Source: Fidelibacterota bacterium | GTDB taxonomy: Bacteria; Pseudomonadota; Alphaproteobacteria; Rhodospirillales; Rhodospirillaceae | DNA: 64,000 bases | NCBI GenBank assembly: GCA_947476895.1 | Contig: CANJRX010000004.1 | Span: 62,001 to 126,000 of the forward strand | Direction of reading: 5' to 3' | In this document: in pieces, positions 24,021 through 38,700 of the stretch | Position numbering within the stretch: position 1 is the stretch's first letter | Layout: each line of letters begins with the position of its first letter | Program-made: the position numbers and the translations under genes | Notes under the pieces: generated by a model | Seen by the model: the letters and a program-made list of their open reading frames with translations, nothing else | The model's database searches: none | What the model was told of the DNA's origin: nothing

Positions 24021-24031
24021 GTACCTGGTAC
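24021..24031 (+). repeat. Dispersed palindrome, copy 1
   Basis: GTACCTGGTAC with A/T-rich flanks (AATTAATTC before, AATAATTTTAA after). The core starts 3 nt after the TAA stop of the preceding gene. It belongs to the seven-copy family described for the RAYT locus at 27.0-27.8 kb. Confidence 0.85.
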
Positions 24032-24092
24032 AATAATTTTAAGGCGCGACGCTCCAGGCGCAGGTGGTGGCGCCCACGTCCATGTGCGCGGC

Positions 24093-24416
24093 CTACTTGT
24101 CGCAAAGGCTGATGCGCTTTTGGCATAAGGGGCCTTTAGCGTTTGAAATTGTCAGCAGGCCATCGGTGATGCGCCATTCCCGCAAGCGCTCGCAGCCAGG
24201 AATGTTGCTGGGGTAGAGGTAAGTAATATCATCCTGAGGGTCGATGGTATGTTCGATCAGCTTCCAGGTGTATTCCCGAAACGCATATTCGAAGCGCATG
24301 ACAACCGCTTCGTTGCGGCTGTTGATGATGTTGATTGCAGCTTTGTCTTGGCTTTGCGCGTGAACTGTCCCGCCCAGCAAAGCCGCCAACAGAAATCCCA
24401 GAGTGATCGGTTTCAT
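24093..24416 (-). CDS. Small secreted protein of unknown function, 107 aa
   Basis: Starting at the ATG at 24416, the product opens with a clear Sec signal peptide (MKPITLGFLLAALLGGTVHA) and gives a mature periplasmic protein of about 87 residues. It contains NSRNEAVVMRFEYAFREYTW and four cysteines near the C-terminus (GCERLREW, PLCQKRISLC) that could form disulfides. A longer frame reaching 24596 runs back into parE and is rejected. I recognise no family. It is in the same direction as parE, 67 nt downstream of it. Confidence 0.7.
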   Translation of the reverse strand: MKPITLGFLLAALLGGTVHAQSQDKAAINIINSRNEAVVMRFEYAFREYTWKLIEHTIDPQDDITYLYPSNIPGCERLREWRITDGLLTISNAKGPLCQKRISLCDK

Positions 24417-24483
24417 ACGCCAAGCCCCCCGCCCGTAATGAGGGAAGATTGTCACATATTCAACGTATTGGTAAAGAGCGCGC

Positions 24484-26523
24484 CTAGATGTCCAAGGCTG
24501 CCGCGAACTTGGCGTTTTCCTGGATGAACTTGAAGCGCTCTTCAGGCTTACGGCCCATAAGCTGTTCGACAAGCTTGGCCGTCGCGCGCTGCGCACTTTT
24601 TTCTTCGTTGCCGGCCAGCATGACTTTGAGCAGCGTGCGCCGTCCCGGATCCATGGTGGTTTCCTTCAGCTGCCCCGGCGGCATTTCGCCAAGACCTTTG
24701 AAGCGGCTGACTTCGACTTTGCCGCGGCTGTCGAAATCGCTTTTCATAATGCGTTCTTTGTCGGCATCGTCCATGGCGTAGATGGTCTTGCCGCGCTGGG
24801 TGAGGCGGTACAGCGGCGGCATAGCAAGAAAGAGATGGCCGTTGTCGATGAGCTCCGGCATCTCGCGATAGAAGAACGTCATCAACAAACTGGCGATATG
24901 CGCTCCGTCCACGTCGGCGTCGGTCATGATGATGATCTTCTCGTAGCGCAGCTTGCTTTCGTCGTAACGCTCGCGAATGCCGCAGCCGAGCGCTTCAATC
25001 AGATCCTGGATTTCCTGATTGGCGCGCATTTTATCGTCGGTCGCCGAAGCCACGTTCAGGATTTTACCGCGCAAGGGCAGCACGGCTTGGGTTTCGCGTG
25101 AACGCGCTTGTTTTGCCGAGCCGCCGGCGCTGTCGCCTTCGACGATGAACAACTCTGTGCCTTGCGGCGACGAGCGTGTGCAGTCGGTCAGCTTGCCGGG
25201 CAGGCGCAGTTTCTTGGTGGCCGACTTGCGGCTGAAGTCCTGATCTTGGCGTTTTTTGACGCGCTCATTGGCGCGCGCGATCACGGTTTCCAACAGCGTA
25301 TTGGCAGTGTTCACATCGCCCGACAGCCAATGGTCGAAGTGATCCTTGATCACAGTTTCCACAAGCTTGGTCGCGGATACCGAAACCAGTTTCTCTTTGG
25401 TCTGGCCTTGGAACTGCGGATCTTTGATGAAGACCGACAGCATGATGCAGGCGCCGCCCCACAGATCCTCGCCTGTGACATTGGCGAGGCCTTTGGTGCC
25501 GGTCATCTCGGCGTAGCCTTTCAGCGCCCGCAGCATGGCGGACTTGAAGCCTTGCTCGTGCGTGCCGCCTTCGACCGTGGGAATGGTATTGCAGTAGGAA
25601 TTCATGAAGCCGGCTTCGTCGTCGGGCCAGCAGGCGGCCCATTCGACTTTGCCGTTGTTGTCGCTGTCGGTCAGTTCCGCTTTACCGGCGAAGAAACTTT
25701 CCACCAGGCGTTTGCGGCCCGCGAGCACATGCGTGAGATAATCCGTAAGGCCGTTGACGAAATGCAGTTCCTCTTCGGCCGGTGTTTTATCATCGCCCTT
25801 TAGCAGGGCCTTGTCGCAGGACCAACGGACCTTCACGCCTTGGAACAGGTACGCCTTGGAGCGCACCATGCGATAGACCACGGCGGGGCGGTAGCGCGCC
25901 GTCTCTCCAAAGATTTCTGTGTCGGGTGTGAAGATCACAGTCGTGCCGCGGCGGTTGACGCTGCCGCCTTTGATCAGTTTGGTGGTCGGAAGACCGCGGC
26001 TAAATTTCTGAGTATAGAGCGTCTTGTCGCGCGCGACTTCCACCGTGAGGTCGCTCGACAGCGCATTGACGACGCTGGCGCCGACGCCGTGCAGACCGCC
26101 CGAGGTTTGATAAACCTTGCCGGAGAATTTTCCGCCCGCATGCAGCGTGGTCATGATGACTTCGAGCGCCGACTTTTTCGGGAACTTCGGATGCGCGTCG
26201 ATGGGCATGCCGCGGCCGTTGTCGACGATGGTCACTTCGTTATCGACGCCGAGATGCACTTCGATGGTATTGGCATAGCCGGCCACGGCTTCGTCCATGG
26301 CGTTGTCGAGCGTTTCGGCGATGAGGTGATGCATCGCGTTCTCATCGCTGCCGCCGATGTACATGCCGGGGCGGCGGCGCACGGGCTCGAGGCCTTCTAA
26401 GACCTCGATGTCTTTGGCGGTGTACCCACCGCCTTCGGATTTCTTTGCGGTTTTCTCAGCGCCTTTTGGAACGCCTTTTTTGGCGCCCTTTTTGGGTTTG
26501 TCGTCGTCGAAAAGATCAGCCAT
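24484..26523 (-). CDS. parE: DNA topoisomerase IV subunit B
   Basis: A 679-residue GyrB/ParE-type ATPase subunit that with ParC unlinks daughter chromosomes. The GHKL ATPase has VRRRPGMYIGG, DNAMDEAVAG, VDNGRGMPID and TSGGLHGVGASVVNALS. The TOPRIM part has FIVEGDSAGGSAKQAR and IIMTDADVDGAHI. It ends in the ParE-type FKGLGEMPPGQLKETTMDP. The lysine-rich N-terminal extension (KPKKGAKKG, about 1-30) is common in alphaproteobacterial ParE. The single uninterrupted C-terminal region without the GyrB insertion supports ParE over GyrB. Confidence 0.95.
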   Translation of the reverse strand: MADLFDDDKPKKGAKKGVPKGAEKTAKKSEGGGYTAKDIEVLEGLEPVRRRPGMYIGGSDENAMHHLIAETLDNAMDEAVAGYANTIEVHLGVDNEVTIVDNGRGMPIDAHPKFPKKSALEVIMTTLHAGGKFSGKVYQTSGGLHGVGASVVNALSSDLTVEVARDKTLYTQKFSRGLPTTKLIKGGSVNRRGTTVIFTPDTEIFGETARYRPAVVYRMVRSKAYLFQGVKVRWSCDKALLKGDDKTPAEEELHFVNGLTDYLTHVLAGRKRLVESFFAGKAELTDSDNNGKVEWAACWPDDEAGFMNSYCNTIPTVEGGTHEQGFKSAMLRALKGYAEMTGTKGLANVTGEDLWGGACIMLSVFIKDPQFQGQTKEKLVSVSATKLVETVIKDHFDHWLSGDVNTANTLLETVIARANERVKKRQDQDFSRKSATKKLRLPGKLTDCTRSSPQGTELFIVEGDSAGGSAKQARSRETQAVLPLRGKILNVASATDDKMRANQEIQDLIEALGCGIRERYDESKLRYEKIIIMTDADVDGAHIASLLMTFFYREMPELIDNGHLFLAMPPLYRLTQRGKTIYAMDDADKERIMKSDFDSRGKVEVSRFKGLGEMPPGQLKETTMDPGRRTLLKVMLAGNEEKSAQRATAKLVEQLMGRKPEERFKFIQENAKFAAALDI

Positions 26524-26626
26524 TTACCAGATCAACCATGTGCGGGGGCGCGAATCCGCGTAAAGTATGAGGGTTCACGCCTGCATACAATATGTGGGCC
26601 GATAATATCTGCGAGGGGATACGTCG

Positions 26627-27028
26627 ATGAGCAAGCACACGCCGCGCGCCGAACCCCAGGGCGAAGTGTCTCTCCGCATGGTGGCCATGCCGGCCGATAC
26701 CAACCCTTCGGGCCAGATCTTCGGCGGCTGGGTGCTGGGGCAGATGGACATGGCGGGCAGCATTCACGCCGTGGGCCAGTCGGGCCAGCGCGTGGTGACC
26801 GTCGCCGTGGATGCCATGGTGTTCCACAAGCCGGTGCATGTGGGCGACGAGGTCACCTGCTACACCAAGATCATGCGGGTGGGACGAACGTCGATCTCGG
26901 TCCTGGTGGAAACCTGGGTGAGGCGCAGCCGCCTCGGTACCTCCATCCACGTCACCGAGGGCCTATTCACCTACGTCGCCGTAGACGCCCGCGGCCACCC
27001 CACCGAAATCCTCAACAAAGAATTTTAA
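26627..27028 (+). CDS. Acyl-CoA thioesterase, YciA-like hotdog fold
   Basis: A 133-residue single-hotdog thioesterase of the YciA group. Motifs include RMVAMPADTNPSGQIFGGWVLGQMD with the catalytic Asp, and VAVDAMVFHKPVHVGDEV. Members hydrolyse a broad range of acyl-CoAs in the cytoplasm. It is divergent from parE and preceded by a GAGGGG-like ribosome site. Its stop codon (27026-27028) lies 2 nt before a copy of the dispersed palindrome. Confidence 0.9.
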   Translation: MSKHTPRAEPQGEVSLRMVAMPADTNPSGQIFGGWVLGQMDMAGSIHAVGQSGQRVVTVAVDAMVFHKPVHVGDEVTCYTKIMRVGRTSISVLVETWVRRSRLGTSIHVTEGLFTYVAVDARGHPTEILNKEF

Positions 27029-27071
27029 TTGTACCTGGTACGAATAAATTAATTGTACCAGGTACAATTAA
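27025..27071. repeat. Paired palindromes left of the RAYT gene (copies 2 and 3)
   Basis: GTACCTGGTAC at 27031-27041 and GTACCAGGTAC at 27055-27065 face each other across a 13-nt A/T spacer. Together with the outer TTAATT and AATTAA flanks they form 17-bp inverted arms (27025-27041 and 27055-27071). The left copy follows the thioesterase stop by 2 nt, and the right copy lies 2 nt beyond the RAYT stop, so each repeat abuts the end of a convergent gene. The paired head-to-head layout is that of a BIME. Confidence 0.9.
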
Positions 27072-27754
27072 TTCGCGTGCGGGCGGCCGCGTTTGCGTTG
27101 GGTGATGGTGCGTCCGGCGTGGCGGCTGACGAGGGCGGCGAAGCGCTCTGGGCCTAGCGGCCACCCGCCGTTGAGAGCGTCACGGATGGCGCCGAGGGTC
27201 GTGTCCGGAATCGCACCCTCGAACAGCCCGGCATAGGCCGCGGGGCGATCCGCGGCCTCGGAAGCGAGGGTTTCATAGAGCGCGTGGTGCGAAATCAGAG
27301 GATCGGCTTTGCCCTCGGCGTTGGCCTTATAGCTCGACCAGCGGTACGCGCCCGGTGCTTTGGCGAGGCCGGCACGCACGGGGTTCAGCTCGATATAGCG
27401 GCTGCAGGCAAAGTAGTAATCATCGGCCTCAATGAGCGATGCGCGGTAGCGCCCCTCCCACAAACTCCCGGTGCGCTCATGCGTGCCGTTGATGTAGCGG
27501 CTGTAGCGCCAGTTCACATGCTTCATGGCGCGCGGTAAGGCGAGGGCGGTTTCTGGCGACACCAACAGGTGCAAGTGGTTGGTCATCAGCACATAGGCAT
27601 GCACGGCGACGCCGTGCTCGGCCGCGGCTTCGCCCAGCCAGTCGAGATACTGCTTAGCGCCGGCCGCGTCGAAAAACACTTGGCCCTTATTATTGCCGCG
27701 CTGGATCACATGAACGGGGTGGCCGGGCAGAAAAACGCGCGGGCGGCGGGGCAT
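27068..27754 (-). CDS. REP-associated tyrosine transposase (RAYT), Y1/HUH family
   Basis: A 228-residue single-strand HUH transposase of the IS200-like RAYT group. The HUH pair is His60 and His62 in LMTNHLHLLVSP. The likely catalytic Tyr is one of Tyr113/Tyr114 in ADDYYFACSRYIELNPVRAG, a hallmark RAYT stretch, and the C-terminus KRGRPHAN fits the basic GRP tail of the group. RAYTs are domesticated transposases that act on short palindromic REP sequences around them. Here paired palindromes flank the gene on both sides. All catalytic residues look intact and the frame is complete. The start codon is 10 nt from a palindrome copy, with only a weak GGA ribosome site. Confidence 0.92.
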   Translation of the reverse strand: MPRRPRVFLPGHPVHVIQRGNNKGQVFFDAAGAKQYLDWLGEAAAEHGVAVHAYVLMTNHLHLLVSPETALALPRAMKHVNWRYSRYINGTHERTGSLWEGRYRASLIEADDYYFACSRYIELNPVRAGLAKAPGAYRWSSYKANAEGKADPLISHHALYETLASEAADRPAAYAGLFEGAIPDTTLGAIRDALNGGWPLGPERFAALVSRHAGRTITQRKRGRPHAN

Positions 27755-27763
27755 GGCTAATTC

Positions 27764-27799
27764 CGTACCTGGTACAATTAATTAATTGTACCAGGTACG
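27764..27799. repeat. 36-bp perfect palindrome right of the RAYT gene (copies 4 and 5)
   Basis: GTACCTGGTAC at 27765-27775 and GTACCAGGTAC at 27788-27798 are joined by AATTAATTAATT. The whole 27764-27799 stretch is a perfect palindrome. Copy 4 lies 10 nt upstream of the RAYT start codon. Copy 5 lies 3 nt beyond what was the stop codon of the FemAB-like gene before the IS1595 insertion. Confidence 0.92.
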
Positions 27800-27811
27800 A
27801 TTTATTTGTCC

Positions 27812-27819
27812 ACATGGCG
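27812..27819. repeat. 8-bp target-site duplication, left
   Basis: ACATGGCG here is repeated exactly at 29817-29824, on the outer side of the right terminal repeat. An 8-bp duplication is what IS1595-family transposition makes. Confidence 0.93.
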
Positions 27820-27894
27820 CACGATTATCCCTTGACGACAAGTAACCTGCCGGATACGCTATCCCTTGTCAACCAGTAAGGGGATAGAGTCGTT

Positions 27895-28776
27895 ATGGCC
27901 AAGTACACCTTCAAGCAGTTCCAAGCGGAATATCCGGATGACGCGGCCTGCCTCCTGAGGCTCATGGAGATCAAATGCGGGGGCACTGAGCGCTATTGCG
28001 AGGGCTGCGGGGTGCTTTCTAAGTTCCACCCGATGAGTAAGCGCCGGGGCTTCGCTTGCCAGACCTGTGGCCATCATGTGTTCCCCTGCGCCGGAACGAT
28101 CTTCGAGAAGTCCAGCACGGCGCTGACGAAGTGGTTCTTCGCCATGTACCTGATGACCAGTACCCGCCACGGCGTTGCCGCGAAGGAATTGGAGCGCCAG
28201 TTAGGCGTGACCTACAAAACGGCGTGGCGTATGGCCCATGAGTTGCGGAAGCTGATGGCTTCCGCCGATACAAACCGCCCTCTGATTGGCCATGTTGAGA
28301 TTGACGAAACCCTGATTGGCGGTCGCCAAAAGGGCGGGGCAAAAGCCCGTCTCAAAAACAAAACCATCGTCATGGGCATGGTAGAGCGAGATGGCATTAT
28401 TCGGGCTGGGGTGGTCCAGGACGTGAAAATGGCTACGCTAGACCCCATTATCAAACACAACGTCCACATCGGCAGCACGATCACCACCGATGAGTTCCAC
28501 AGCTACAACAGCATCCCTAAGCAGTGGTACGAGCATGGCGTCGTGAACCATTCAGCGAAGGAATATGTTCGAGGCAAGCACCACACCAATACGATTGAAG
28601 GTCATTGGTCACAGCTAAAGCGTTCGATCAAAGGAACGCACGTTCACGTATCTGGTAAGCATCTGTGGAAATACGTCAGCGAGTTCAGCTTTCGCCGCAA
28701 TCACCGCGCCTCACACGAAGGCATGTTTAATCAGCTTGTGGCTTCGTTCGTGCTGCCGCGTTTAGCAGAGACGTGA
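27895..28776 (+). CDS. IS1595-family transposase
   Basis: A 293-residue transposase. The N-terminus has a zinc ribbon (CEGCG about 35-39, CQTCG about 55-59), followed by a helical domain with KTAWRMAHELRKLM. The catalytic DDE-type core has Asp in VEIDETLIGG, Asp in TTDEFHSYNS and the late acidic residue in NTIEGHWSQLKRS, the ISXO2-like pattern. All three acidic residues are present, so it is probably active. The coding frame starts 51 nt inside the left terminal repeat. Its 3' end overlaps the convergent passenger gene by 50 nt. Confidence 0.95.
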   Translation: MAKYTFKQFQAEYPDDAACLLRLMEIKCGGTERYCEGCGVLSKFHPMSKRRGFACQTCGHHVFPCAGTIFEKSSTALTKWFFAMYLMTSTRHGVAAKELERQLGVTYKTAWRMAHELRKLMASADTNRPLIGHVEIDETLIGGRQKGGAKARLKNKTIVMGMVERDGIIRAGVVQDVKMATLDPIIKHNVHIGSTITTDEFHSYNSIPKQWYEHGVVNHSAKEYVRGKHHTNTIEGHWSQLKRSIKGTHVHVSGKHLWKYVSEFSFRRNHRASHEGMFNQLVASFVLPRLAET

Positions 28777-29659
28777 AAGCCTCTTTATGTTGTGAAGTGG
28801 TCTGGTCCACTTCCTCAATGTGACCGGCTAATTCTACGCCGTCCTTCAGTATCAACATCTTTTCAAAATCGCGCTCGACTTCTTTGTGGGGATTAGACAA
28901 TGCCGGTACCTCCAAGAGTTCTAGAATTTTCCAACTGGGAACGACGCCGTTGAGCCAAGTGTTTTCCCCAGTGTCAGGGTCGATAATGTGCCCCCAGTTC
29001 ACGCCTAGTAAACCGAAAAAACTCATAACCTTCATCACGACAATCGGAGAGTGATCCTGTCGATAAACGGCCACTGGGGAACCTGAGAATCCCGTGCGGG
29101 ATCGCATCTCAACCGCAAAACTTTCTTGGTTCCGCTTTAGTCCTGGATGCGGGATGTTCTCTAACATCATACTGACACAACCGAATCGCATCGCCGGGCG
29201 GTTATCGCGCGAGCCCTGATGGTTGAGAAAGCGTCCCGGCATAAGCACTTCGTCACCGACGCCAATCTCGTATTCTATCATTTGCTCTTTGGTGAGAATC
29301 TTGTGCGTGGGCATCATGCGTAGAGCATGAATACCGAAATCCATTTTCCCTATGAGTGACGCGATAGCGAGGTCGTCGCCGTCGGGGTGGACAATCCAGT
29401 CATGCGTATCCAGGTCGATGACGTCGGGCTTTAGGCCGTCGCGCCGGTTCACTCGAATGACTGGACAGCCCATATCCCAAGCGACGTGTCGGTTCGTCAC
29501 CATGAAGGGGTTATAACGCTCGGTAAATTTGCCGTTGGAATAGATCGGCTTGCCGATGAGAAAGCAGGTACCGCCGGAGCGCGCGTGCTTTTCCGCCTCA
29601 TCCTTCGTCTTGTAGAGGAAGGCAACGCCCTCCAGAATGTTATCTGGCGCTCTAGGCAT
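28727..29659 (-). CDS. Trypsin-like serine protease carried by the IS
   Basis: A chymotrypsin-fold protease-like protein, 310 residues from the ATG at 29659 (AGGAGG lies about 10 nt upstream); an ATG at 29773 would add 38 residues with no clear domain. A full catalytic triad can be proposed: His in MVTNRHVAWD, Asp in HPDGDDLAIASL and Ser in RTGFSGSPVAVY, where GxSGxP is the usual nucleophile loop. There is no signal peptide from this start, so it would act in the cytoplasm. Its role in transposition is unknown; it may be cargo that benefits the host or the element. It lies wholly inside the IS, convergent with the transposase. Confidence 0.75.
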   Translation of the reverse strand: MPRAPDNILEGVAFLYKTKDEAEKHARSGGTCFLIGKPIYSNGKFTERYNPFMVTNRHVAWDMGCPVIRVNRRDGLKPDVIDLDTHDWIVHPDGDDLAIASLIGKMDFGIHALRMMPTHKILTKEQMIEYEIGVGDEVLMPGRFLNHQGSRDNRPAMRFGCVSMMLENIPHPGLKRNQESFAVEMRSRTGFSGSPVAVYRQDHSPIVVMKVMSFFGLLGVNWGHIIDPDTGENTWLNGVVPSWKILELLEVPALSNPHKEVERDFEKMLILKDGVELAGHIEEVDQTTSQHKEAFTSLLNAAARTKPQAD

Positions 29660-29800
29660 ATCCTCAGGGCCTCCTGAACCCGCCCATGAGGATCGCGCGT
29701 GCAGTATCCAAGGCGGGCAACATGGCTCGTCACTGGCGACAGCTAGTCTCAAGGGTGGGCTAGCGTGGTCCATATAGTTTTACCCGTCCACTACTTGTTG

Positions 29801-30991
29801 TTAAGGGATAATCGTGACATGGCGGTAGGGACCGGCTTCGGCCAAGGCCTCGATTTCCTCGGTCACCGCTTCGCGTTCTTGATCGAGGAAGCGGGCCACA
29901 GCGGCTTTGAAGGCCGGGTCGGCGATCCAGTGGGCGGAATAGGTCGGGCGGGGCAGGTAGCCCCGCTGGATCTTATGCTGCCCTTGCGCCCCGGCCTCGA
30001 CCCAGGCAAGCCCGCGCGCGATGGCGAAGTCGATGGCGCGGTAGTAGCAGACCTCGAAATGCAGCATGGGGGCGTCCACGACGGTCCCCCAGTTGCGCCC
30101 AAACAGCGTATCGCCGCCCATGAGGTTGAGCGCGCCGCAGACCAGCTGGCCGTCCTTTTCGCCCATGATCAGCACCACGGCGTCGCCCAAGCGCTGACCC
30201 AACAAATCGAAGAATTCGCGGGTGAGGTAGGCCTGCCCCCACTTGCGATCCGAGGTGTTCATATAAAAGGCGAAGAACGCATCCCAGTGCCGCGGCGTGA
30301 TGTCCGCCCCCGTCAGCGTCGAAATCGTAATACCGGCGCTGTTAGCGACTTCGCGCTCGCGCCGGATGGTTTTGCGTTTGCGCGACGACAGCGCCCCCAG
30401 AAAATCATCGAAGCTCGCGTAGCATTCGTTCTTCCAGTGATACTGCTCCCCGAGGCGCGGCAATAAACCTGCGTCGGTCATGAGCTCCGCTTCCGGCGCC
30501 GTCGGGAACGTCACATGCAAGGACGAAACTTTCAAACGCTGCGCCAACTCGACCATGCCGGCCAGCAGTGTGCGCTGCAGGTCAGCGCTTGTCGCGGCAT
30601 CCACATCACCACGCACCATCAGCCGGGGGCCCGTCACCGGCGTAAACGGCACGGCGCATTGCAGTTTGGGATAATAGCGCCCGCCGGCGCGTTGATAGGC
30701 CTCGGCCCAGCCCCAATCGAAGACATATTCGCCGTAAGAATGGGACTTTAAATACAACGGCGCACACGCGAGCACACGCCCTTTGCCGTCTTCCAAGACG
30801 ACATGCTGTGGCCGCCATCCGGCCTCGGCATCCACCGATCCGGAATCCTCAAGCGCGCTAAAGAAAGCGTGACGCACAAAAGGATTGTGGTGAGGTGTGC
30901 CCACGCCGGCGCAAGCGTCCCAGTTCGCAGCTGGAACTTTATGGATGCTTGAGACGACTTTTAAGGTCCAGGCCTCGCGCGCGTCATCCAA
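29801..30991 (-). CDS. FemAB/GNAT-like acyltransferase (DUF482), C-terminus replaced by IS
   Basis: A 396-residue protein of the GNAT-like group annotated as peptidoglycan-bridge related (DUF482). Motifs include NPFVRHAFFSALEDSGS, LHVTFPTAPEAEL, SSRKRKTIRREREVANSAGI and FEVCYYRAIDFAIARGL near the C-terminus. The start is a TTG at 30991, since no in-frame ATG fits. The last residues (T-I-I-P and stop) come from the IS1595 right terminal repeat. Removing the IS and one duplication restores H-V-D-K and a TAA at 27802-27804. The change touches only the final residues, so function is probably kept. It follows ridA with a 2-nt gap. Confidence 0.85.
   Translation of the reverse strand: MDDAREAWTLKVVSSIHKVPAANWDACAGVGTPHHNPFVRHAFFSALEDSGSVDAEAGWRPQHVVLEDGKGRVLACAPLYLKSHSYGEYVFDWGWAEAYQRAGGRYYPKLQCAVPFTPVTGPRLMVRGDVDAATSADLQRTLLAGMVELAQRLKVSSLHVTFPTAPEAELMTDAGLLPRLGEQYHWKNECYASFDDFLGALSSRKRKTIRREREVANSAGITISTLTGADITPRHWDAFFAFYMNTSDRKWGQAYLTREFFDLLGQRLGDAVVLIMGEKDGQLVCGALNLMGGDTLFGRNWGTVVDAPMLHFEVCYYRAIDFAIARGLAWVEAGAQGQHKIQRGYLPRPTYSAHWIADPAFKAAVARFLDQEREAVTEEIEALAEAGPYRHVTIIP
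29817..29824. repeat. 8-bp target-site duplication, right
   Basis: ACATGGCG directly follows the right terminal repeat and equals the 8 bp before the left terminal repeat at 27812-27819. Confidence 0.93.
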
Positions 30992-30993
30992 TG

Positions 30994-31461
30994 TTAGGCA
31001 ACCTCAAACACCGCTTCGACTTCAACCGATGCGCCGCGCGGTAGCGACGGCGCACCGACAGCCGCACGCGAATGACGTCCGGCATCACGGAAGACTTCCA
31101 CCATCAAATCTGAAGCGCCGTTGATGACTTTGGGCTGATCGGCAAAACCCGCAACGCCCGCAACAAACCCTGTGAGTTTCACCACCTGTATCACGCGGTC
31201 GAGATCGCCGTTGCAGGCCGCTTTCACCTGGGCGATGAGGTTAAGACCGCAAATGCGGGCCGCCTGGTAAGCGTCATCGGTAGAGACTTCGGCCCCCACG
31301 AGTCCCGGAAATTTAAGCTGTCCGTCCCACATCGGCAGCTGGCCCGAGACAAACACCAGATTTCCACTGCGCACATAGGGGACATAATTTGCTACGGGCG
31401 CGGACGCTGCTGGCAAAATCATGCCCAAAGCCTGGATATGTGCGTCGATTTTACCGGCCAT
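30994..31461 (-). CDS. RidA family protein
   Basis: A 155-residue YjgF/YER057c/UK114 family protein. Visible features are VPYVRSGNLVFVSGQLPMWDGQ, the helix NLIAQVKAACNGDLDRVIQVVKLTGFV, and the C-terminal SRAAVGAPSLPRGASVEVEAVFEV, where the conserved Arg binds the carboxylate of the substrate. RidA proteins hydrolyse reactive enamine/imine intermediates from PLP enzymes. The ATG at 31461 is chosen because GAGGAG lies 7 nt upstream. The length fits the longer RidA subgroup. Confidence 0.9.
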   Translation of the reverse strand: MAGKIDAHIQALGMILPAASAPVANYVPYVRSGNLVFVSGQLPMWDGQLKFPGLVGAEVSTDDAYQAARICGLNLIAQVKAACNGDLDRVIQVVKLTGFVAGVAGFADQPKVINGASDLMVEVFRDAGRHSRAAVGAPSLPRGASVEVEAVFEVA

Positions 31462-31553
31462 AAAATACTCCTCGGATTGTCTTAAACAGGGGCAGCAAAT
31501 GTGATAGTCCACGGCCTCAAAGCTGCATCGCTATTACATATGAAAGCACGCCG

Positions 31554-32804
31554 GTGGAAAAGCTCTCCCTTCCCAAAAGCAAAATAAAAGTTCTGCTGGT
31601 CGAGAATATCCACAAAAGCGCCGTGGACCTGTTCAAGCGCAATGGTTACGCCAATGTGGAAAGTCTGCGCGATGCTTTCGACGCCGAGGAACTGAAAAAG
31701 AAGCTTAAGGATGTGCACATCCTGGGCATCCGTTCGCGCACCAAGCTGACCAAAGACGTGCTGGAAGCCGGCGAAAAGCTTTTGACCGTCGGCGCCTTTT
31801 GCATCGGCACAAACCAGATCGATTTGAAGTGCGCCAAGCGCCTCGGCATTCCGGTGTTCAATGCGCCGTATTCGAACACACGCTCGGTGGCCGAATTGGT
31901 GCTGGCTGAAATCATCATGCTGTTTCGCGGCATTCCGCAACGCTCTTGGGGTGCGCATGAAGGCGGCTGGGACAAAACCGTAAAGGGTGCGCGCGAAATT
32001 CGCGGTAAGGTCATCGGCATCGTCGGCTACGGCCACATCGGCACGCAGCTTTCGATCATCGCCGAAGCCATGGGCATGCAGGTGCGCTTCTACGACATCG
32101 TTGAGAAGCTGGCCTTGGGCAACGCGCAGCCTTGCGACTCATTGGATGAGTTGTTGGAAATTGCCGACGTCGTCACGCTGCATGTGCCCGAGACGCCTGA
32201 AACAAAAAACATGATCACGGCCGCCAAGTTCAAGAAGATGAAAAAGGGAGCGTTCTTCATCAACGCTTCGCGCGGCACGGTGGTGGATATCCCGGCCTTA
32301 GCAGAATCGGTGAAAAGCGGCCACGTCGCGGGCGCGGCGGTGGACGTATTTCCGAAAGAGCCTTCCGGTCCGGAAGAGAAATTCAAAAGTCCGTTGCAGG
32401 GTTTGCGCAACGTGATCCTGACGCCGCACATCGGCGGCTCGACCGAAGAAGCACAGGCCAATATCGGCGGCGAAGTCGCCGAGAAGTTGGTGAAGTATTC
32501 CGACAATGGCTCGACCTTGGGCGCGGTGAATTTTGTGGAAGTGGCGCTGCCGCCGCAATCCAACACCACGCGCTTCATGCATATCCACCGCGACGAGCCG
32601 GGCGTCATGGCGCGCATTTCGGAGTTGTTCTCGCGCCGCGAGATCAATATCGCCGGCCAGTACCTGCGCACGGACGGTGAGATCGGTTACGTGGTGACCG
32701 ACGTCATCGGCCGGGTGAAGGTGGGCATGGGCATCCGCAAGGACCTGGCGGGAGTGCCGGGCACCGTGCGTACACGCTTCCTCTACGAGGCCCCGCCTAA
32801 ATAA
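31554..32804 (+). CDS. serA: D-3-phosphoglycerate dehydrogenase
   Basis: A 416-residue SerA of the short, ACT-containing (E. coli-like) type, catalysing the first step of serine synthesis from 3-phosphoglycerate with NAD. The nucleotide-binding loop is VIGIVGYGHIGTQLS, the catalytic Arg is in INASRGTVVDI, and the Glu/His pair lies in LTPHIGGSTEEAQ. The C-terminal ACT domain (about 340-416, HRDEPGVMARISELFSRREINIAG) is the serine feedback site. It starts at a GTG at 31554. Its TAA is 2 nt from a dispersed palindrome copy. Confidence 0.95.
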   Translation: MEKLSLPKSKIKVLLVENIHKSAVDLFKRNGYANVESLRDAFDAEELKKKLKDVHILGIRSRTKLTKDVLEAGEKLLTVGAFCIGTNQIDLKCAKRLGIPVFNAPYSNTRSVAELVLAEIIMLFRGIPQRSWGAHEGGWDKTVKGAREIRGKVIGIVGYGHIGTQLSIIAEAMGMQVRFYDIVEKLALGNAQPCDSLDELLEIADVVTLHVPETPETKNMITAAKFKKMKKGAFFINASRGTVVDIPALAESVKSGHVAGAAVDVFPKEPSGPEEKFKSPLQGLRNVILTPHIGGSTEEAQANIGGEVAEKLVKYSDNGSTLGAVNFVEVALPPQSNTTRFMHIHRDEPGVMARISELFSRREINIAGQYLRTDGEIGYVVTDVIGRVKVGMGIRKDLAGVPGTVRTRFLYEAPPK

Positions 32805-32806
32805 TT

Positions 32807-32817
32807 GTACCAGGTAC
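32807..32817 (+). repeat. Dispersed palindrome, copy 6
   Basis: GTACCAGGTAC preceded by AATT and followed by CAATTAAGG. It begins 2 nt after the serA stop codon. Confidence 0.88.
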
Positions 32818-32862
32818 CAATTAAGGCGGGGAACTGATCGTAATAAGCAGCGTTAAGGGTGC

Positions 32863-34833
32863 ATGCGCCGTCACCCCAAAGCCGCGATTGTAGGAAGTGT
32901 TGTGCTCGGCGTCATCGCCGTGGCCGTCGCATTTCTGCTGCTTTACGACTTCAAAGGCTTGGCCGAGCGCCGCTCGTCGGCCGCTTTGGGCCGCCCCGTT
33001 ACCATCGGCTCCCTTCACCTTGGGATATTCCCTCTCGAGGCCGTTCTTCAGGACATCAACGTCGCCGATGTGGCGCTGGGCCAGCCCAACCCCGCCAATA
33101 AACCCGCCTTCATGAAGGCCGGGCACGTCGACGCGGTGATTGGTTTCTGGCGGCTCTTGGGCGGCGATCTTGTATTTCGCCATCTTAACGTTGAAGAGGC
33201 CGTAGCCCGCATTGAACGCCGCGCCGATGGCTCCCTGACGTGGGAAGTCGATCAGTCAGCGCGAGATAAGGACAAGTCCGAACTGCCCGAGATCGCCGAG
33301 CTGCGCTTACGAGACGTAAAGGTCTACTACACCGACGCGCTGAACAAGGCCAAGCTCACGCTCAATGTTGATACCCGCGAATACGACGATGGCCGCGAAC
33401 CCAGCTTGATCGTCAAAGGCGATGGCACCTACGCGGGCCAACCTTCCACCATCACGTTTACGGGCGGTTCGCTCCTGACTCTCCGCGATTCGGAACATCC
33501 TTATCCCATTGACGGCACCCTGGTGTCGGGCCCGACAGCCATTTCCATTAAAGGCACGATAACTGAACCTGCGCAGATTACCGGCCTCAACGTGACGCTG
33601 AATGTCAAAGGCAAGGATGCGGCTGATCTGTACCGCGTTGCTGGCATCGCGCTGCCGCCGACGCCGCCTTATGTCATCGACACCCACGTCGACCGCTACG
33701 GTGAACGCTGGATCCTTAAAAATCTCAAATGGACTATGGGCAAGAGCGATTTTGCTGGGGAGTTGGTCTGGGACCGCAGCAAGAAAATTCCTTTGCTAAC
33801 GGGACACCTGCACGCAGGCAATCTTGCGCTGAAAGACATTGGCGGTTTTATCGGTGCGGCACCGGGTGAAGCCGAAACGCCGGCCGAAGTTAAACGCGAA
33901 GCCGCCGCGCGCGAACGAGACCGGCGTGCAGGTGCGCCAGTGCCGGAGCAGACGGTAGCGGCAGAGTTGCTCATCCCTGATCGGGTCATCGACCTAGAGA
34001 AATTGAACAGCATGAACGCCAAGGTTCATGTGGAAGCGGACAAGATCATCGAAGACCATCTTCCGCTGGACACGATGAAAGTCGACGTCGTGCTGCAGGA
34101 CGGCGTCCTGACGTTAAAGCCGCTGGAATTCGGCGCCGATGCCGGAAAGCTGGTGATCAACCTGACCATCAACGGCCGTGCCAAGCCCATCACCACCGAC
34201 TTTGCTTTAACCGTGCAAGGGTTCCCGCTGGAACGTGTGGTCGGTAAAGCCGGCGGTAAGAACACTAGCTGGGGCGCCATTGGCGGTCATGCCGAATTCA
34301 AAGGCACCGGCGATTCCATGCACCGTATTCTGGCCAATGCGGATGGAAACGTAGGCCTCGCCGTCGGCGGCGGCCAATTAAGCCTGTTTTTGGTGGAACT
34401 CATGGGCGTCGATCTTGCCGAAACGCTGGGCATTATGTTGACCAAAGACAAGCCAACCGAGATCCGCTGCATCGTCGGTGACTTCGCGCTCGAGAAGGGC
34501 AAGATGACGGCGCGCACCATGGTGGCCGACACGCGCGATACCATTTTTACCGGGAGTGGCAGCATCGATCTAGGCCGCGAAATTTTGGACATGCGCGTGC
34601 ATGCAAAGCCGAAAGACATCAGTCCGCTGACACTGCGTTCCAAGCTGCTGCTGACCGGCACGTTTGCCAATCCGCCCTTCGGGCCGGACCCGGCAGCACT
34701 GGTGTTGAAAGGTGGCGCGGCTGCTGCACTAGGCGTGCTGCTGACGCCGATTGCCAGTCTTTTGATGCTGATTGACGCGGGCGGCGGCAAAGACGCTAAC
34801 TGCGCGGCGCTGTTCGAGAAAGCTCAGAAGTAG
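32863..34833 (+). CDS. AsmA family protein
   Basis: A 656-residue AsmA-like envelope protein. One N-terminal membrane helix (about 8-28) is followed by RPVTIGSLHLGIFPLEAVLQDINVAD, the usual AsmA opening, then long repeating beta-strand segments, and a C-terminal AsmA region with AEFKGTGDSMHRILANADGNVGLAVGGG and DTRDTIFTGSGSIDLG. Proteins of this type form long beta-groove bridges across the periplasm and are implicated in phospholipid movement to the outer membrane. It stands alone between serA and a convergent gene, whose stop abuts its own. Confidence 0.88.
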   Translation: MRRHPKAAIVGSVVLGVIAVAVAFLLLYDFKGLAERRSSAALGRPVTIGSLHLGIFPLEAVLQDINVADVALGQPNPANKPAFMKAGHVDAVIGFWRLLGGDLVFRHLNVEEAVARIERRADGSLTWEVDQSARDKDKSELPEIAELRLRDVKVYYTDALNKAKLTLNVDTREYDDGREPSLIVKGDGTYAGQPSTITFTGGSLLTLRDSEHPYPIDGTLVSGPTAISIKGTITEPAQITGLNVTLNVKGKDAADLYRVAGIALPPTPPYVIDTHVDRYGERWILKNLKWTMGKSDFAGELVWDRSKKIPLLTGHLHAGNLALKDIGGFIGAAPGEAETPAEVKREAAARERDRRAGAPVPEQTVAAELLIPDRVIDLEKLNSMNAKVHVEADKIIEDHLPLDTMKVDVVLQDGVLTLKPLEFGADAGKLVINLTINGRAKPITTDFALTVQGFPLERVVGKAGGKNTSWGAIGGHAEFKGTGDSMHRILANADGNVGLAVGGGQLSLFLVELMGVDLAETLGIMLTKDKPTEIRCIVGDFALEKGKMTARTMVADTRDTIFTGSGSIDLGREILDMRVHAKPKDISPLTLRSKLLLTGTFANPPFGPDPAALVLKGGAAAALGVLLTPIASLLMLIDAGGGKDANCAALFEKAQK

Positions 34834-35769
34834 TTAAGCGCCGGGGACTGGGAAACTTGGTCCCAGCACTTGCCGCCATTCTGCAGCCGCCTCAGTAACT
34901 TTCCCGCTTTTCAAATGATAATCGGCAAGCGTCGCGCGCCAATAGGCGGCTTTGGCCTTGCCGTGCCATTCCTCACCAACTTCAATCTCTGTCTGACCGC
35001 CAGGCGGCTTGATGGCCCCGCGTGGCCGCACGCGCGCCCATGCCCAGAAATCTACCAACGCGCGTTCGAGTTCATAGGGGCGCGGTGAGCCGGAATAAAA
35101 TTCCTGCGCCAGCAGTTCGAGCGCAAAGGATGCGACGGGCACCTGCGCGTGATTGCGCCAGGCTTTCAGTGCAGTCATCAGAAGGCGCGGGCGACCGCCG
35201 TAAAGGCTGTCGGACAAGCGCAGTGTCGCCGCTTCGGCGATGGGGTTCGTTATACTCCAGCCCGTCGCGCGCGTGAGCGTGGGCACGCCGGGAACCAGAT
35301 ACGCGCCGTTGTGTTCACGGCAGGGCATCACCCTCACCCACACAGTGCCGCGCGGCACCAAGACGCCAGTCTCGGCGATGGTCACGCCGTCGAAGCGGTT
35401 CTTGAGCACCGCCCAGACGATCTTCAAAGCGTCACCGGCTTTTTGCGCCGTGAGTTTGGGCGGCAGCAAATACAACACATCGGCTTCGGTGATGGGGGCG
35501 ACGGCCGTGCGTTTACCGACCGCGCCGGCGATCAGGTGATCGCTGCCGACGTCACCGTCGTTTTTGGGATAAAGCTCCGCGCGCAAAACGGCGGTCACAT
35601 CGTCGCACACACCGCGCGCCACGGCATAAGCGGTGTGGCTTGGAACGACGCGGCGCAGAAACTCACCGAAGCACGCGCCCAGAACCGGCACCGTCGCAGA
35701 TGTGGGAAACCCAGATATGCGTACCGGATCGGCGGCGGGGCGTTTGACGAGGGCGGGAGGAAGCGGCAT
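34834..35769 (-). CDS. Nucleotidyltransferase-fold protein resembling CD-NTases, catalytic residues altered
   Basis: A 311-residue protein from the ATG at 35769. The stretch AGAVGKRTAVAPITEADVLYLLP (about 81-103) lines up with the GS...DxD active-site loop of CD-NTase/OAS-type nucleotidyltransferases, and LLMTALKAWRNHAQVPVASF followed by ALELLAQEFY (about 197-225) matches their helical spine. The active-site Ser is Ala83, the first Asp is Glu95, and the third Asp position in VWVRVMPC (about 143-150) is Arg. It may therefore be inactive. No CBASS effector, E1/E2-like or HORMA gene is adjacent. A longer frame to 35874 runs through the palindrome repeat into nrdJ and is rejected. The family call is by eye and tentative. 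Confidence 0.55.
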   Translation of the reverse strand: MPLPPALVKRPAADPVRISGFPTSATVPVLGACFGEFLRRVVPSHTAYAVARGVCDDVTAVLRAELYPKNDGDVGSDHLIAGAVGKRTAVAPITEADVLYLLPPKLTAQKAGDALKIVWAVLKNRFDGVTIAETGVLVPRGTVWVRVMPCREHNGAYLVPGVPTLTRATGWSITNPIAEAATLRLSDSLYGGRPRLLMTALKAWRNHAQVPVASFALELLAQEFYSGSPRPYELERALVDFWAWARVRPRGAIKPPGGQTEIEVGEEWHGKAKAAYWRATLADYHLKSGKVTEAAAEWRQVLGPSFPVPGA

Positions 35770-35779
35770 CAGATTAATT

Positions 35780-35790
35780 GTACCTGGTAC
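35780..35790 (+). repeat. Dispersed palindrome, copy 7
   Basis: GTACCTGGTAC flanked by TTAATT and AATTG. It lies 5 nt beyond the nrdJ stop codon and 10 nt upstream of the CD-NTase-like start codon. Confidence 0.88.
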
Positions 35791-35795
35791 AATTG

Positions 35796-38700
35796 TTAGG
35801 AACATCCGCTGGTAGAGCCGCAGGTGTCGCACTTCATGCAGGTGCCATTGCGGAGCAGCGTGAAGTTGGCGCACTCGCCGCAGGCATCGCCTTCATAGCC
35901 CTTCATGCGCGCGGCATGGATGCCATGCACAGCGCGGCGGGATTCTGTGACTTCGGTGACGCGCGTCACCTTCACTTCTTCAGCGGCGTATTGCTGGTCC
36001 ATGGCGAGCGCGCTGCCGGACATAGAGACCGGACCATTGGCCGCGGGCGTACTTGTCAGCGTTTGCGTGCCGACCGCACTTGCGCCGCCGCCGTCGCCTT
36101 TGTTGCGTCCGTGGTTTTTGAGGAAGTAGAGATTGCTTGAACGCACAAAACCTTTCGATACGGTTTTGCCTGCCATCTCCATCAACTTCTCGGCCTGTTC
36201 GCCGATACCCATGGCATCGGGCGCGATGTCGTGAGTCTCGACGTGCGCGAGGTCATGGCGATCCAGATAACTCACGGCCAGTTCGCGGAAGATGTAGTCC
36301 AAAATCGACGTCGCCATCTTGATGGACGAGTTGCCTTCCACAGGGCCAGACGGATCAAACCGCGTGAAGGTAAAGGCATCGACGTATTCTTCCAGTGGCA
36401 CGCCGTATTGCAGGCCGATGGAAATGGCGATGGCGAAGTTGTTCATAAGGCTGCGGAAGGCGGCTCCCTCTTTGTGCATGTCGACAAAGATTTCACCGAG
36501 CTTGCCGTCTTCATATTCGCCGGTGCGCACATAGACTTTGTGACCGCCGACGATGGCTTTCTGGGTGTAACCTTTGCGGCGTTCAGGAAGACGTTGGCGC
36601 TCGCGTTCCACCACGCGCTCGATGATGCGCTCAACCGTAACTTCGGCGCGTGCAGCTGCGGGCGCTTGCACGACCGTTTCAACGGCATCTTCATCGTCGA
36701 ATTCATCTTCAAACAGACTGGCCGCCAAAGGCTGCGAAAGCTTCGACCCATCGCGATAAAGCGCGTTGGCCTTCAGGCCCAGCTTCCACGACTTCATGTA
36801 AGCGTTGGCGCAATCGGCGATGCTGGCCGCGTTGGGCATATTGACGGTTTTGGAGATCGCGCCCGAGATGAAAGGCTGCGATGTCGCCATCATGCCGATG
36901 TGGCTGTCGACCGAGAGGAAGCGTGTGCCGATGCGGCCGCAGGGGCTCGCGCAATCAAACACAGGCAGGTGCTCGGCCTTCAGATGCGGCGCACCTTCCA
37001 GGGTCATGGCGCCGCAAACGAACGCATTAGCGGCATCGATCTCGGCTTTGGAGAAGCCCAGCGCTTCAAGCATGTTGAAGCCCACATCGTCCAACTGCTC
37101 GGAATCAAAGCCCAGCTTGTTGATGCAGAATTCATCGCCCAGTGTATAGCGGTTGAACACGAACTTGATGTCGAAGGCATCGCTCAGCGACTTCTCGATC
37201 GCTTCAAGGGCGTTTTTGTCGAAGCCGCGGTCGGCCAGCGACGTGGCGTTGATGGACGGCGCATTCTTCAGCGTCGCGCGGCCTACGGCGTATTCAATAA
37301 TGTCTTCGACTTGGCGCGCGTTGTAGCCAAGCGTATTCAACGCCAGCGGCACGATGCGGTTGATGATTTTGAAATATCCGCCGCCCGCCAGCTTTTTAAA
37401 CTTCACCAGTGCGAAGTCGGGCTCGATGCCCGTGGTATCGCAATCCATCACCAGGCCGATGGTGCCGGTGGGCGCGACAACGGTGACTTGCGCATTGCGG
37501 AAGCCGTGGGCGGTGCCGAGTTCCAGCGCCTTATCCCAAGCGTGCTTGGCGGCGTTGACGAGATTGGAGTCCGGGCAATCGGCGGCGTTGAGCGCCACGG
37601 GCTTTGCGCGCAGGCCTTCGTAGCCGTCGTGATGGCCGTACGCTGCGCGGCGATGATTGCGGATCACGCGCAACATATCGACACGGTTGGGCAGGAAGCC
37701 GGGGAACGCGCCGTGTTCTTCGGCCATCTCAGCCGATGTCGCGTAAGCGGTGCCGGTCATAAGCGCACTGACAGCGCCGCAGAGTGCGCGGCCCTCGTCG
37801 CTGTCGTAGCCGAGGCCGTTGGCCATCAGCAGGCCGCCGAGATTGGCGAAGCCCAAACCCAGCGTTCGGAACTTGTGCGAAAGTTCGGCGATTTCCTTGG
37901 ACGGGAATTGCGCCATCAGGACCGAGATTTCTAGCGCCATGGTCCACAGACGTGTCGCGTGCGTGAAACCATCAACATCGAAGGTTCCGTCGTCCTTGCG
38001 GAAGGCGAGCAGGTTCATGGAGGCGAGGTTGCACGCCGTGTTGTCCAGGAACATGTATTCCGAACAGGGGTTCGACGCATTGATGCGTCCCGACTGCGGG
38101 CAGGTGTGCCAGGCATTGATGGTGCTATCGAACTGCACGCCCGGATCGGCGCACTGCCAGGCGGCTTCGCCGATGCGGTCCCACAAGGCGCGGGCTTTGA
38201 TGGTCTTTACGACTTTGCCGCCGACGCGGCTGGTCAATTCCCAATCGCTGTCTTTCTCGACGGCATCCAGAAATTCATCGGTGATGCGGACGCTGTTGTT
38301 GGAATTCTGGCCGGCAACAGTGGCGTAAGCTTCGGAATCCCAATCCGTATCGAATTCGGGAAACTCGGACGTGCTGCTGCCTTGCCGCGCGATTTGCAAC
38401 GCGCGTTGAATGATGTTCTCGGCCACAAGGGCATTGCGCGCGGCTTTGATTTCTTTGCGCAGCTGCTTGTTGACCTTGGGATCAAAGCGTCCGTCAGTGT
38501 CCGCGCCGTCCCAGCTGCGCACAGCGCGCAAGATGGCGTTCAGATGCCGGCGGGTGATGCGCGAGCCGGTTACGAGGGCTGCGACCTTTTGCTCTTCGCG
38601 CACTTTCCAGTCGACGAACTCTTCGATGTCCGGATGATCGACGTTGAGGATCACCATCTTGGCCGCACGGCGCGTGGTGCCGCCCGACTTCACAGCGCCC

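What the first reader, a model, noticed from the sequence alone, without database searches (positions are those of the whole stretch)
24021..35790. Seven copies of a GTACC(A/T)GGTAC palindrome placed at gene ends around a RAYT gene
Cores lie at 24021, 27031, 27055, 27765, 27788, 32807 and 35780, all with AATT-rich flanks, and I found none in the other 52 kb. Six of the seven sit 2-5 nt from a stop codon (one of these after undoing the IS insertion), on either strand. A RAYT gene lies at the centre. RAYTs are known to act on REP sequences, but those are usually 20-40 nt imperfect hairpins headed by GTAG or GGAG. This unit is a short, nearly perfect palindrome with no such head. It may be a new REP type, or a binding site for a dimeric protein at 3' ends.
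Basis: partly seen in the sequence, partly recalled or inferred. Interest (0 to 1): 0.82.

Follow-up and report, generated by a model that had tools for sequence, protein, structure and literature searches.

The report
RAYT-linked palindromic repeat at gene ends
A tiny mirror-image DNA repeat scattered mostly at gene ends in this bacterium travels with one single-strand-cutting enzyme gene (a RAYT) through most of its genus, which makes it a new, headless variant of a known class of transposase-linked repeats and a clean natural test of how such repeats spread.

Summary
Observation confirmed: all seven GTACCWGGTAC palindromes are where stated, none elsewhere in the window; the genome holds 21 (reversed-motif control 0). 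They form inverted pairs on both sides of a RAYT gene (27068-27754, minus). Of 19 genomes of the genus, the 13 whose RAYT carries such repeats hold 5-33 copies; five hold 0 (one, G003, keeps the RAYT without them) and G018 (no RAYT found) holds 3. In G016 the core changed at the RAYT and at dispersed sites. In 11 genomes 30 of 195 non-adjacent copies lie within 9.5 kb of the RAYT (1.2 expected). In four genomes 61 of 82 copies lie near a gene 3' end; the AT arm often supplies the TAA stop.

Best reading: a TIRYT/RAYT system (group 1, subclass 2.1) whose repeats are odd palindromes that can fold as ssDNA hairpins with a CWG loop. One survey found no REP-like repeats with this subclass; another described 'TIR' families. 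CWG-centred palindromes also flank many RAYTs in Bacillota, where the link to copy number is not established. Cutting and mobility are inferred. New variant of a known kind.

The parts
24021..24031 (.). repeat core GTACCTGGTAC, 3 nt after the TAA of 23484-24017(+)
27031..27041 (.). repeat core GTACCTGGTAC, first of an inverted pair (24 nt apart); its arm holds the TAA of the thioesterase gene
27055..27065 (.). repeat core GTACCAGGTAC, second of the pair; its arm holds the TAA stop of the RAYT
27068..27754 (-). RAYT/TIRYT: Y1 HUH transposase, 228 aa, NHLH, WEGR, YIELNP
27765..27775 (.). repeat core GTACCTGGTAC, upstream pair, 10 nt from the RAYT start codon
27788..27798 (.). repeat core GTACCAGGTAC, upstream pair (23 nt apart); the pair can fold as one 16-bp ssDNA hairpin (-17.1 kcal/mol)
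32807..32817 (.). repeat core GTACCAGGTAC, 2 nt after the TAA of the 2-hydroxyacid dehydrogenase (serA-like) gene
35780..35790 (.). repeat core GTACCTGGTAC, 5 nt after the stop of the B12-dependent ribonucleotide reductase gene
26627..27028 (+). 4HBT thioesterase; RAYT neighbour in 13 of 13 fetched relatives
31554..32804 (+). 2-hydroxyacid dehydrogenase with ACT domain (serA-like); repeat at its end in 7 of 13 genomes compared
35796..39494 (-). B12-dependent ribonucleotide reductase with a repeat at its 3' end
27895..28776 (+). IS1595-type transposase; it lies between the RAYT's upstream pair and the gene (29801-30991) found next to the RAYT in relatives

Best explanation
The palindromes are the cognate repeats of the resident RAYT, a group-1/subclass-2.1 single-strand transposase of the TIRYT type. 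Shown: the RAYT is kept at one locus across species, under purifying selection, and bracketed by the repeat; copy number in the genus follows it; core and arms change together at the RAYT and at dispersed sites; copies are concentrated near the RAYT and at gene 3' ends; sites are occupied in some species and empty in others. Inferred: when the strand is single (replication or transcription), AATTGTAC-CWG-GTACAATT folds into a hairpin with a CWG loop that the RAYT recognises and nicks with its tyrosine, and repair or strand transfer copies the repeat to new single-stranded sites, first of all near its own gene. New copies survive mainly at gene ends because the core has no stop in any frame and the arms bring TAA, so a gene entered near its end simply ends there. 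The upstream pair, 5-16 nt from the RAYT start codon and T-then-A in 12 of 13 species, probably also serves as its operator or mRNA hairpin.
For: Copy number: the 13 genus genomes whose RAYT is flanked by the repeat hold 21, 14, 33, 20, 27, 17, 22, 19, 25, 26, 26, 5 and 12 copies (mean 20.5); the other 6 hold 0, 0, 0, 0, 0 and 3; the 129 relatives outside the genus hold at most 7. Core shift: G016 has GTCCCTGGTAC at its RAYT and 13 genome-wide against 0-5 in the 18 others, while GTACCWGGTAC falls to 5. Arms are species-specific within a genome, e.g. G007, G012. Locus: thioesterase beside the RAYT in 13 of 13 fetched relatives; the gene on the other side in 12 of 12 with sequence there (0.65 kb away in G001; G014's contig ends); dN/dS 0.075-0.19 in six pairs. 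Proximity: 30 of 195 non-adjacent copies within 9.5 kb, 1.18 expected, in 11 of the 13 genomes (G014, short contig, and G016, changed core, left out). Turnover: serA-end repeat in 7 of 13 genomes; of 43 dispersed site clusters in four genomes one junction is occupied in all four and one more matches on both sides in two. 3' ends: 61 of 82 copies within -30..+50 nt of a gene 3' end, against 5.5-6.9% of random positions and 19-25% of random intergenic ones. Fold: 8-bp stem, CWG loop.
Against: No cleavage, binding or transposition is shown. G003 keeps an orthologous RAYT (60% identity, catalytic motifs present) with no repeat at the locus and 0 in the genome. G018 has 3 copies and no RAYT found, though its assembly is broken. 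P0001 falls below the NCBIfam cut-off for REP-associated transposases (70.7 against 80 bits). No clean empty-site/filled-site pair fixes the ends of the unit; the closest pairs are 85-89% alike. The 0-5 nt stop enrichment (29 of 82) is inflated because the arm itself carries TAA. Gene ends come from my own simple codon-model calls. Clustering near the RAYT is absent or weak in 3 of 11 genomes (G001, G008, G011), and shared ancestry makes the genomes non-independent. In Bacillota, motif-rich genomes such as G164 (79 copies) and G167 (56) showed no RAYT flanked by the motif among those examined. Copy numbers are far below the hundreds of many classical REPs.
Confidence: 0.8

Rival explanations
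1. The palindrome is a double-stranded binding site for some other dimeric protein (a regulator, a chromosome-organising protein or a CCWGG methylase) placed at 3' ends, and the RAYT merely sits among the sites.
For: Nearly perfect dyad symmetry; the variants seen in the genus keep CCWGG, with one CCSGG pairing in G001; one junction (low-molecular-weight phosphatase / RNA ligase-like gene, names from my reading of the translations) occupied in all four species compared. I did not look for a methylase.
Against: Presence follows the RAYT; the core change in G016 is shared by RAYT flanks and genome; repeats bracket the RAYT on both sides in 13 of 13 species, as pairs on both sides in 12 (a single copy downstream in G017); most sites found no match between species; different RAYT lineages carry different outer arms.
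Confidence: 0.1
2. The repeats are 3'-end RNA hairpins (terminators or mRNA stabilisers) kept by selection, whatever their origin.
For: 61 of 82 copies near 3' ends; the pair folds strongly as a single strand (DNA parameters).
Against: Arms are AT-rich with no fixed T run; two copies lie just before the RAYT start codon; sites come and go between species. It would be a use of the repeat, not a rival for its spread.
Confidence: 0.07
3. The repeats are now fossils: the RAYT no longer mobilises them, and their pattern reflects an old burst plus decay.
For: Degenerate copies exist (G009, G001 at the B/parE junction); copy numbers are low.
Against: Perfect cores after 11-27% locus divergence, species-specific homogenised arms, and RAYT under purifying selection.
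Confidence: 0.15

Closest known systems
TIRYT / TIRtron (Di Nocera et al. 2013, PMC3733652; passages read)
   Same: Tyrosine transposase flanked by inverted repeats without GTAG; some repeats self-complementary; moderately abundant families, as dimers and clusters. The second RAYT of this genome (contig C43) has a GGGGTCAGAGT pair that fits the GGGGWSAS consensus quoted there.
   Different: Here the repeat is an 11-nt odd palindrome with a CWG centre, coevolving over 13 species at one locus, near gene ends and the RAYT, with stop codons supplied by its arms.
Subclass 2.1 of TnpA-Y1 = Bertels group 1 (Quentin et al. 2018, PMC6006769; abstract, section 12 and the first part of section 15 read; Bertels et al. 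2017 itself was not held)
   Same: Length about 230 aa (their median 238), NHVH-type, W[EQ], YIELNP; low copy number.
   Different: That survey reports that neither automatic nor manual searches found REP-like sequences with this subclass.
Classical REP/RAYT (REPtron), REPIN (Nunvar et al. 2010, PMC2817692; start of abstract seen in a listing, passages and section 8 read; Bertels and Rainey 2011 seen only in a search listing)
   Same: RAYT bracketed by inverted pairs, syntenic orthologs, repeat-RAYT coevolution, repeat numbers following the rayt, and in four genomes repeats piled up near the rayt.
   Different: No GTAG/GGAG head, far fewer copies, palindrome symmetric except for the central W.
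Group 3 REPs of Stenotrophomonas maltophilia (PMC8266576; passages read)
   Same: 8-bp perfect stem with a 3-nt loop whose sequence is needed for binding and cleavage.
   Different: Carries a GTAG motif that cleavage needs; another RAYT group; loop GCT.

Membership tests
TIRYT / subclass 2.1 RAYT | Y1/HUH fold with NH-u-H, W[EQ] and YIELNP-type motifs, about 230 aa | tested here: met
   PF01797 52.1 bits; NHLH, LWEGR, YIELNP, 228 aa. No HMM of the subclass itself was available.
TIRYT / subclass 2.1 RAYT | C-terminal HTH-like domain | not tested
   Pfam gave only Y1_Tnp; no structure was predicted
TIRYT / subclass 2.1 RAYT | Gene flanked by inverted repeats unrelated to GTAG REPs | tested here: met
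TIRYT / subclass 2.1 RAYT | Flanking repeat also dispersed in the genome | tested here: met
   21 copies, control 0
Classical GTAG REP | GTAG/GGAG-type head 5' of the hairpin | tested here: not met
   By eye in the 23 own-genome copies printed: no such head; 22 of 23 have AT-rich arms on both sides
Classical GTAG REP | Abundant, usually over 100 copies | tested here: not met
   21 in the genome; 5-33 in the 13 genus genomes
REPIN | Two inverted repeats acting as one mobile unit | tested here: inconclusive
   Tight pairs in the fetched loci of 12 genomes: 18 T-A, 6 A-T, 5 T-T, 1 A-A of 30; mobility not shown
REP-associated tyrosine transposase, NCBIfam NF047646 | Score at or above the curated cut-off | tested here: not met
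   70.7 bits against 80; the Rossellomorea RAYT reaches 89.5
IS200/IS605 insertion sequence | Multiple near-identical transposase copies | tested here: not met
   Two PF01797 genes in the genome, 52% identical

The most novel reading that the evidence does not exclude
Many group-1 RAYTs in at least two phyla read one code: an odd palindrome with a fixed C-W-G loop and a lineage-specific outer arm (GTAC-CWG-GTAC, GTGC-CWG-GCAC, GAGC-CWG-GCTC, GGGGT-CWG-ACCCC, TTATAT-CWG-ATATAA). The central W, the only asymmetric base, gives each copy its orientation. A domesticated RAYT at a fixed locus thus maintains a small, self-copying set of hairpins at gene ends that it also uses to control itself.
Probability: 0.3. 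Interest if true: 0.72.

Novelty: new variant of a known kind. Interest (0 to 1): 0.55.

Why it matters
RAYTs are widespread domesticated transposases of unknown benefit, and the largest subclass that is not an IS transposase (group 1, subclass 2.1) was reported to lack REP-like repeats (PMC6006769). Here a member of that group has a dispersed repeat family that can be followed over 13 species at one locus, with matched core changes and sites that are filled in some species and empty in others. This makes the question of what RAYT recognises and how its repeats spread directly testable with short oligonucleotides, and suggests a simple rule (CWG loop plus a variable arm) seen in two phyla.

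Tried and rejected
Chance: rejected. Rfam: only a tRNA in the window at gathering thresholds. An insertion unit with clean ends: close pairs (G010/G017; G008/G014/G004) were aligned, but filled and empty sites are too diverged or already shared to fix the ends. A conserved internal sequence in the wide A..T pairs (12 of 17 wide pairs; 11 are 57-65 nt apart, one 49): by eye the spacers are unrelated, and about two thirds of these pairs sit between convergent called genes; the near-constant spacing stays unexplained. A simple RAYT-copy number rule in Bacillota: not established; RAYTs flanked by GTACCWGGTAC were found in 4 of the 36 genomes of the Rossellomorea group (G155, G156, G168, G188), while 0-79 copies occur over the 36; I examined 50 flank sets (49 distinct RAYTs, one of G192 twice), not all the hits. 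'The RAYT evolves faster than its neighbours': not supported as a rule; RAYT 60-80% identity lies between parE/serA (79-92%) and asmA or the 23484 gene (45-71%). Structure prediction, viral scans and the PADLOC and PHROGs libraries were not used. Labels come from loose patterns; by eye GGTCAGAG at L093 and TATCWGATA next to L140 are not repeat pairs. Rows dropped: L108 from the flank statistics (RAYT at a contig end); three short RAYT fragments of G013 not fetched; G000 loci L036 (possible chance copy) and L042 (variant) left out.
Full report
OBSERVATION. The seven palindromes are real and stand out: 7 matches (all exact, one mismatch allowed), 0.16 expected from shuffles, largest 1. The window lies in a 2.71-Mb genome in 46 contigs with 21 exact copies, the reversed motif giving 0, plus a two-copy variant doublet on contig C10. 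The longer form is AATTGTACCWGGTACAATT: 10 of 21 copies match it exactly and 19 of 21 within three mismatches.

ANATOMY. The RAYT gene (27068-27754, minus) is bracketed by two inverted pairs (27031/27055 and 27765/27788). The core is symmetric except for the central W, so W gives the orientation; both pairs, the tight pair on contig C1 and the variant pair run T then A. A single copy folds as an 8-bp ssDNA stem with a CWG loop (-4.4 kcal/mol); the upstream pair folds as one 16-bp hairpin (-17.1, z -9.5). A second RAYT on contig C43 has a different pair upstream, GGGGTCAGAGT...ACTCTGACCCC.

THE RAYT AND THE REPEAT TRAVEL TOGETHER. P0001 was sought in 148 genomes and the motif counted in the same ones. 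Thirteen of the 19 genus members, the window's own included, have the RAYT with GTACC-type repeats on both sides and hold 5-33 copies (mean 20.5). The others: G002, G005, G006 and G013 have other RAYT types (three short fragments of G013 not looked at) and 0 copies; G003 has the orthologous RAYT without repeats and 0 copies; G018 has no RAYT hit, 3 copies and a broken assembly. Outside the genus (129 genomes) the largest count is 7 (G137), then 4 and 3. No genome without any RAYT hit has more than 3. In the named collection, 27 of 35 stretches with the exact 19-mer belong, by accession, to seven genomes that map onto this genus; the own genome may be left out of that scan.

COEVOLUTION. At the locus of G016 the cores are GTCCCTGGTAC...GTACCAGGGAC, mirror-changed; genome-wide it has 13 copies of that form (0-5 in the 18 others) and only 5 of the standard one. 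A more distant RAYT of the family (53% identity, L099) has GTACCCGGTAC; in the RAYT tree it groups with the GTACC clade (96/85), which also holds L094 and L093 without clear repeats, while the Rossellomorea RAYT lies far away. AT arms differ between species but match within a genome, e.g. TTAC/TTAA in G007, ATCC/GGAT in G012. The RAYT stays beside the thioesterase in 13 of 13 fetched relatives and beside the 29801-type gene in 12 of 12 with sequence on that side, and is under purifying selection (dN/dS 0.075-0.19 in six pairs). HUH and Tyr motifs are present in all 14 genus proteins checked, G003 included; the W motif pattern missed in G011 and G007.

WHERE COPIES LIE. In 11 genomes, leaving out copies within 200 nt of the RAYT, 30 of 195 lie within 9.5 kb of it (1.18 expected); single genomes range from 6 of 16 (P 1e-11) to 0 of 11. 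Relatives share junctions and partly ancestry, so the genomes are not independent. In four genomes (G000, G009, G011, G012; all 82 exact copies) 29 copies are 0-5 nt after a stop, 40 within 15 nt, 61 within -30..+50 nt; random positions give 0.4-0.6%, 2.2-2.8% and 5.5-6.9%, random intergenic ones 3-4%, 7-9% and 19-25% (gene ends from my own codon-model calls). G011 is the weakest (10 of 19 in the widest band). All 29 close stops are TAA, 26 of them 2 or 3 nt from the core, that is inside the repeat arm, so the closest band is partly a property of the repeat. The core has no stop in any frame; read in frame it gives V-P-G-T. Tails made by the repeat include TIVPGTNN* (phosphatase-like, G000), NKTVPGTN* (thioesterase, G015), NKVVPGTE* (G012) and the RAYT's own SYVPGT end in G007.

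TURNOVER. The serA-like gene has a repeat at its end in 7 of 13 genomes; the B/parE and asmA/ribonucleotide reductase junctions vary likewise. Of 43 dispersed site clusters in four genomes, one junction is occupied in all four, one more is shared by G009 and G012, and no other pair matched on both sides (blastn of 1.5-kb flanks, so distant matches can be missed). No closely related empty site fixed the ends of the unit.

PAIR GEOMETRY. In the fetched loci of 12 genomes, of 30 tight pairs (35 nt or less) 18 are T-A, 6 A-T, 5 T-T, 1 A-A; of 17 wide pairs (36-80 nt) 12 are A-T, 4 T-A, 1 T-T. The pair before the RAYT is T-A in 12 of 13 species (A-A in G001) and its second copy ends 5-16 nt from the start codon; the downstream copies vary. 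That the upstream pair controls the RAYT is inference.

A WIDER RULE? Flanks of 50 other RAYT loci (48 of this order, the own-genome second RAYT among them, one G003 locus and one from Rossellomorea) hold 21 odd palindromes with arms of 6 or more; 12 have a CWG centre (0.54 expected from shuffled flanks), in 7 of the 50 loci; five of the 12 are from the Rossellomorea locus and one may be chance. In 50 flank sets from the Rossellomorea group (49 distinct RAYTs) 69 of 72 have it (0.65 expected), from GTACC, GTGCC, GAGCC and similar arms; tandem copies inflate this count. Many RAYTs of the order instead have inverted repeats that are not such palindromes, e.g. GGGGACACAATAC or GGTGACAG, so the rule is not universal. 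Motif richness in Bacillota could not be tied to one RAYT lineage.

KNOWN WORK. Quentin et al. 2018 (PMC6006769) describe a subclass 2.1 (Bertels group 1) whose motifs these proteins fit, and found no REP-like sequences with it. Di Nocera et al. 2013 (PMC3733652) named TIRYTs, flanked by TIRs that can form moderately abundant, sometimes self-complementary families; Quentin et al. place 20 of their 26 in subclass 2.1. Nunvar et al. 2010 (PMC2817692) reported repeat-RAYT coevolution, copy number following the rayt, and repeats piled up near the rayt in four genomes. PMC8266576 showed for a GTAG-type RAYT that an 8-bp stem and a 3-nt loop are read. A full-text search for the two 11-mers and two TIRYT terms gave 14 papers; six hold an 11-mer, and by title and start of abstract none is about repeats (their texts were not read). 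So the class is known; the headless CWG palindrome family, its history in one genus and its use as a gene end are new as far as these searches go.

VERDICT. A RAYT/TIRYT repeat family, confidence 0.8; mobility by ssDNA cutting is inferred. New variant of a known kind.

Noticed in passing
L043 (own genome, contig C43), 1162-1866 minus and upstream: Second RAYT of the genome with a GGGGTCAGAGT...ACTCTGACCCC pair upstream only; the same type recurs in G002, G006, G007, G010, G013.
   Followed up: partly
L031 about 3666-3763 (contig C1:159165-159262): Triplet T-23-A-64-T of repeats between convergent phosphatase-like and RNA ligase-like genes (names from my reading of the translations); this junction carries repeats in all four species compared.
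   Followed up: partly
L138 3351/3409, L048, L052, L053, L078, L067 and others: Wide A-then-T pairs, 11 of 12 of them 57-65 nt apart, with unrelated spacers; cause unknown.
   Followed up: partly
L139 (G003): Orthologous, apparently intact RAYT at the same locus with no repeat there or in the genome: RAYT kept without its repeats.
   Followed up: partly
window 34834-35874 minus: ORF with a weak match to a CBASS oligonucleotide cyclase model (55 bits, cut-off 200), between the asmA-like and ribonucleotide reductase genes; the repeat at 35780 overlaps its called 5' part.
   Followed up: no
named loci L045-L079: Depositors call these genomes Candidatus Marinimicrobia or Rhodospirillaceae, yet 27 of the 35 stretches map to genomes grouped in the window's genus: a label conflict.
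   Followed up: partly
L233, L234, L241, L265 (Rossellomorea group): Arrays of TGAGCCAGGCTCA-type palindromes beside RAYT genes.
   Followed up: no
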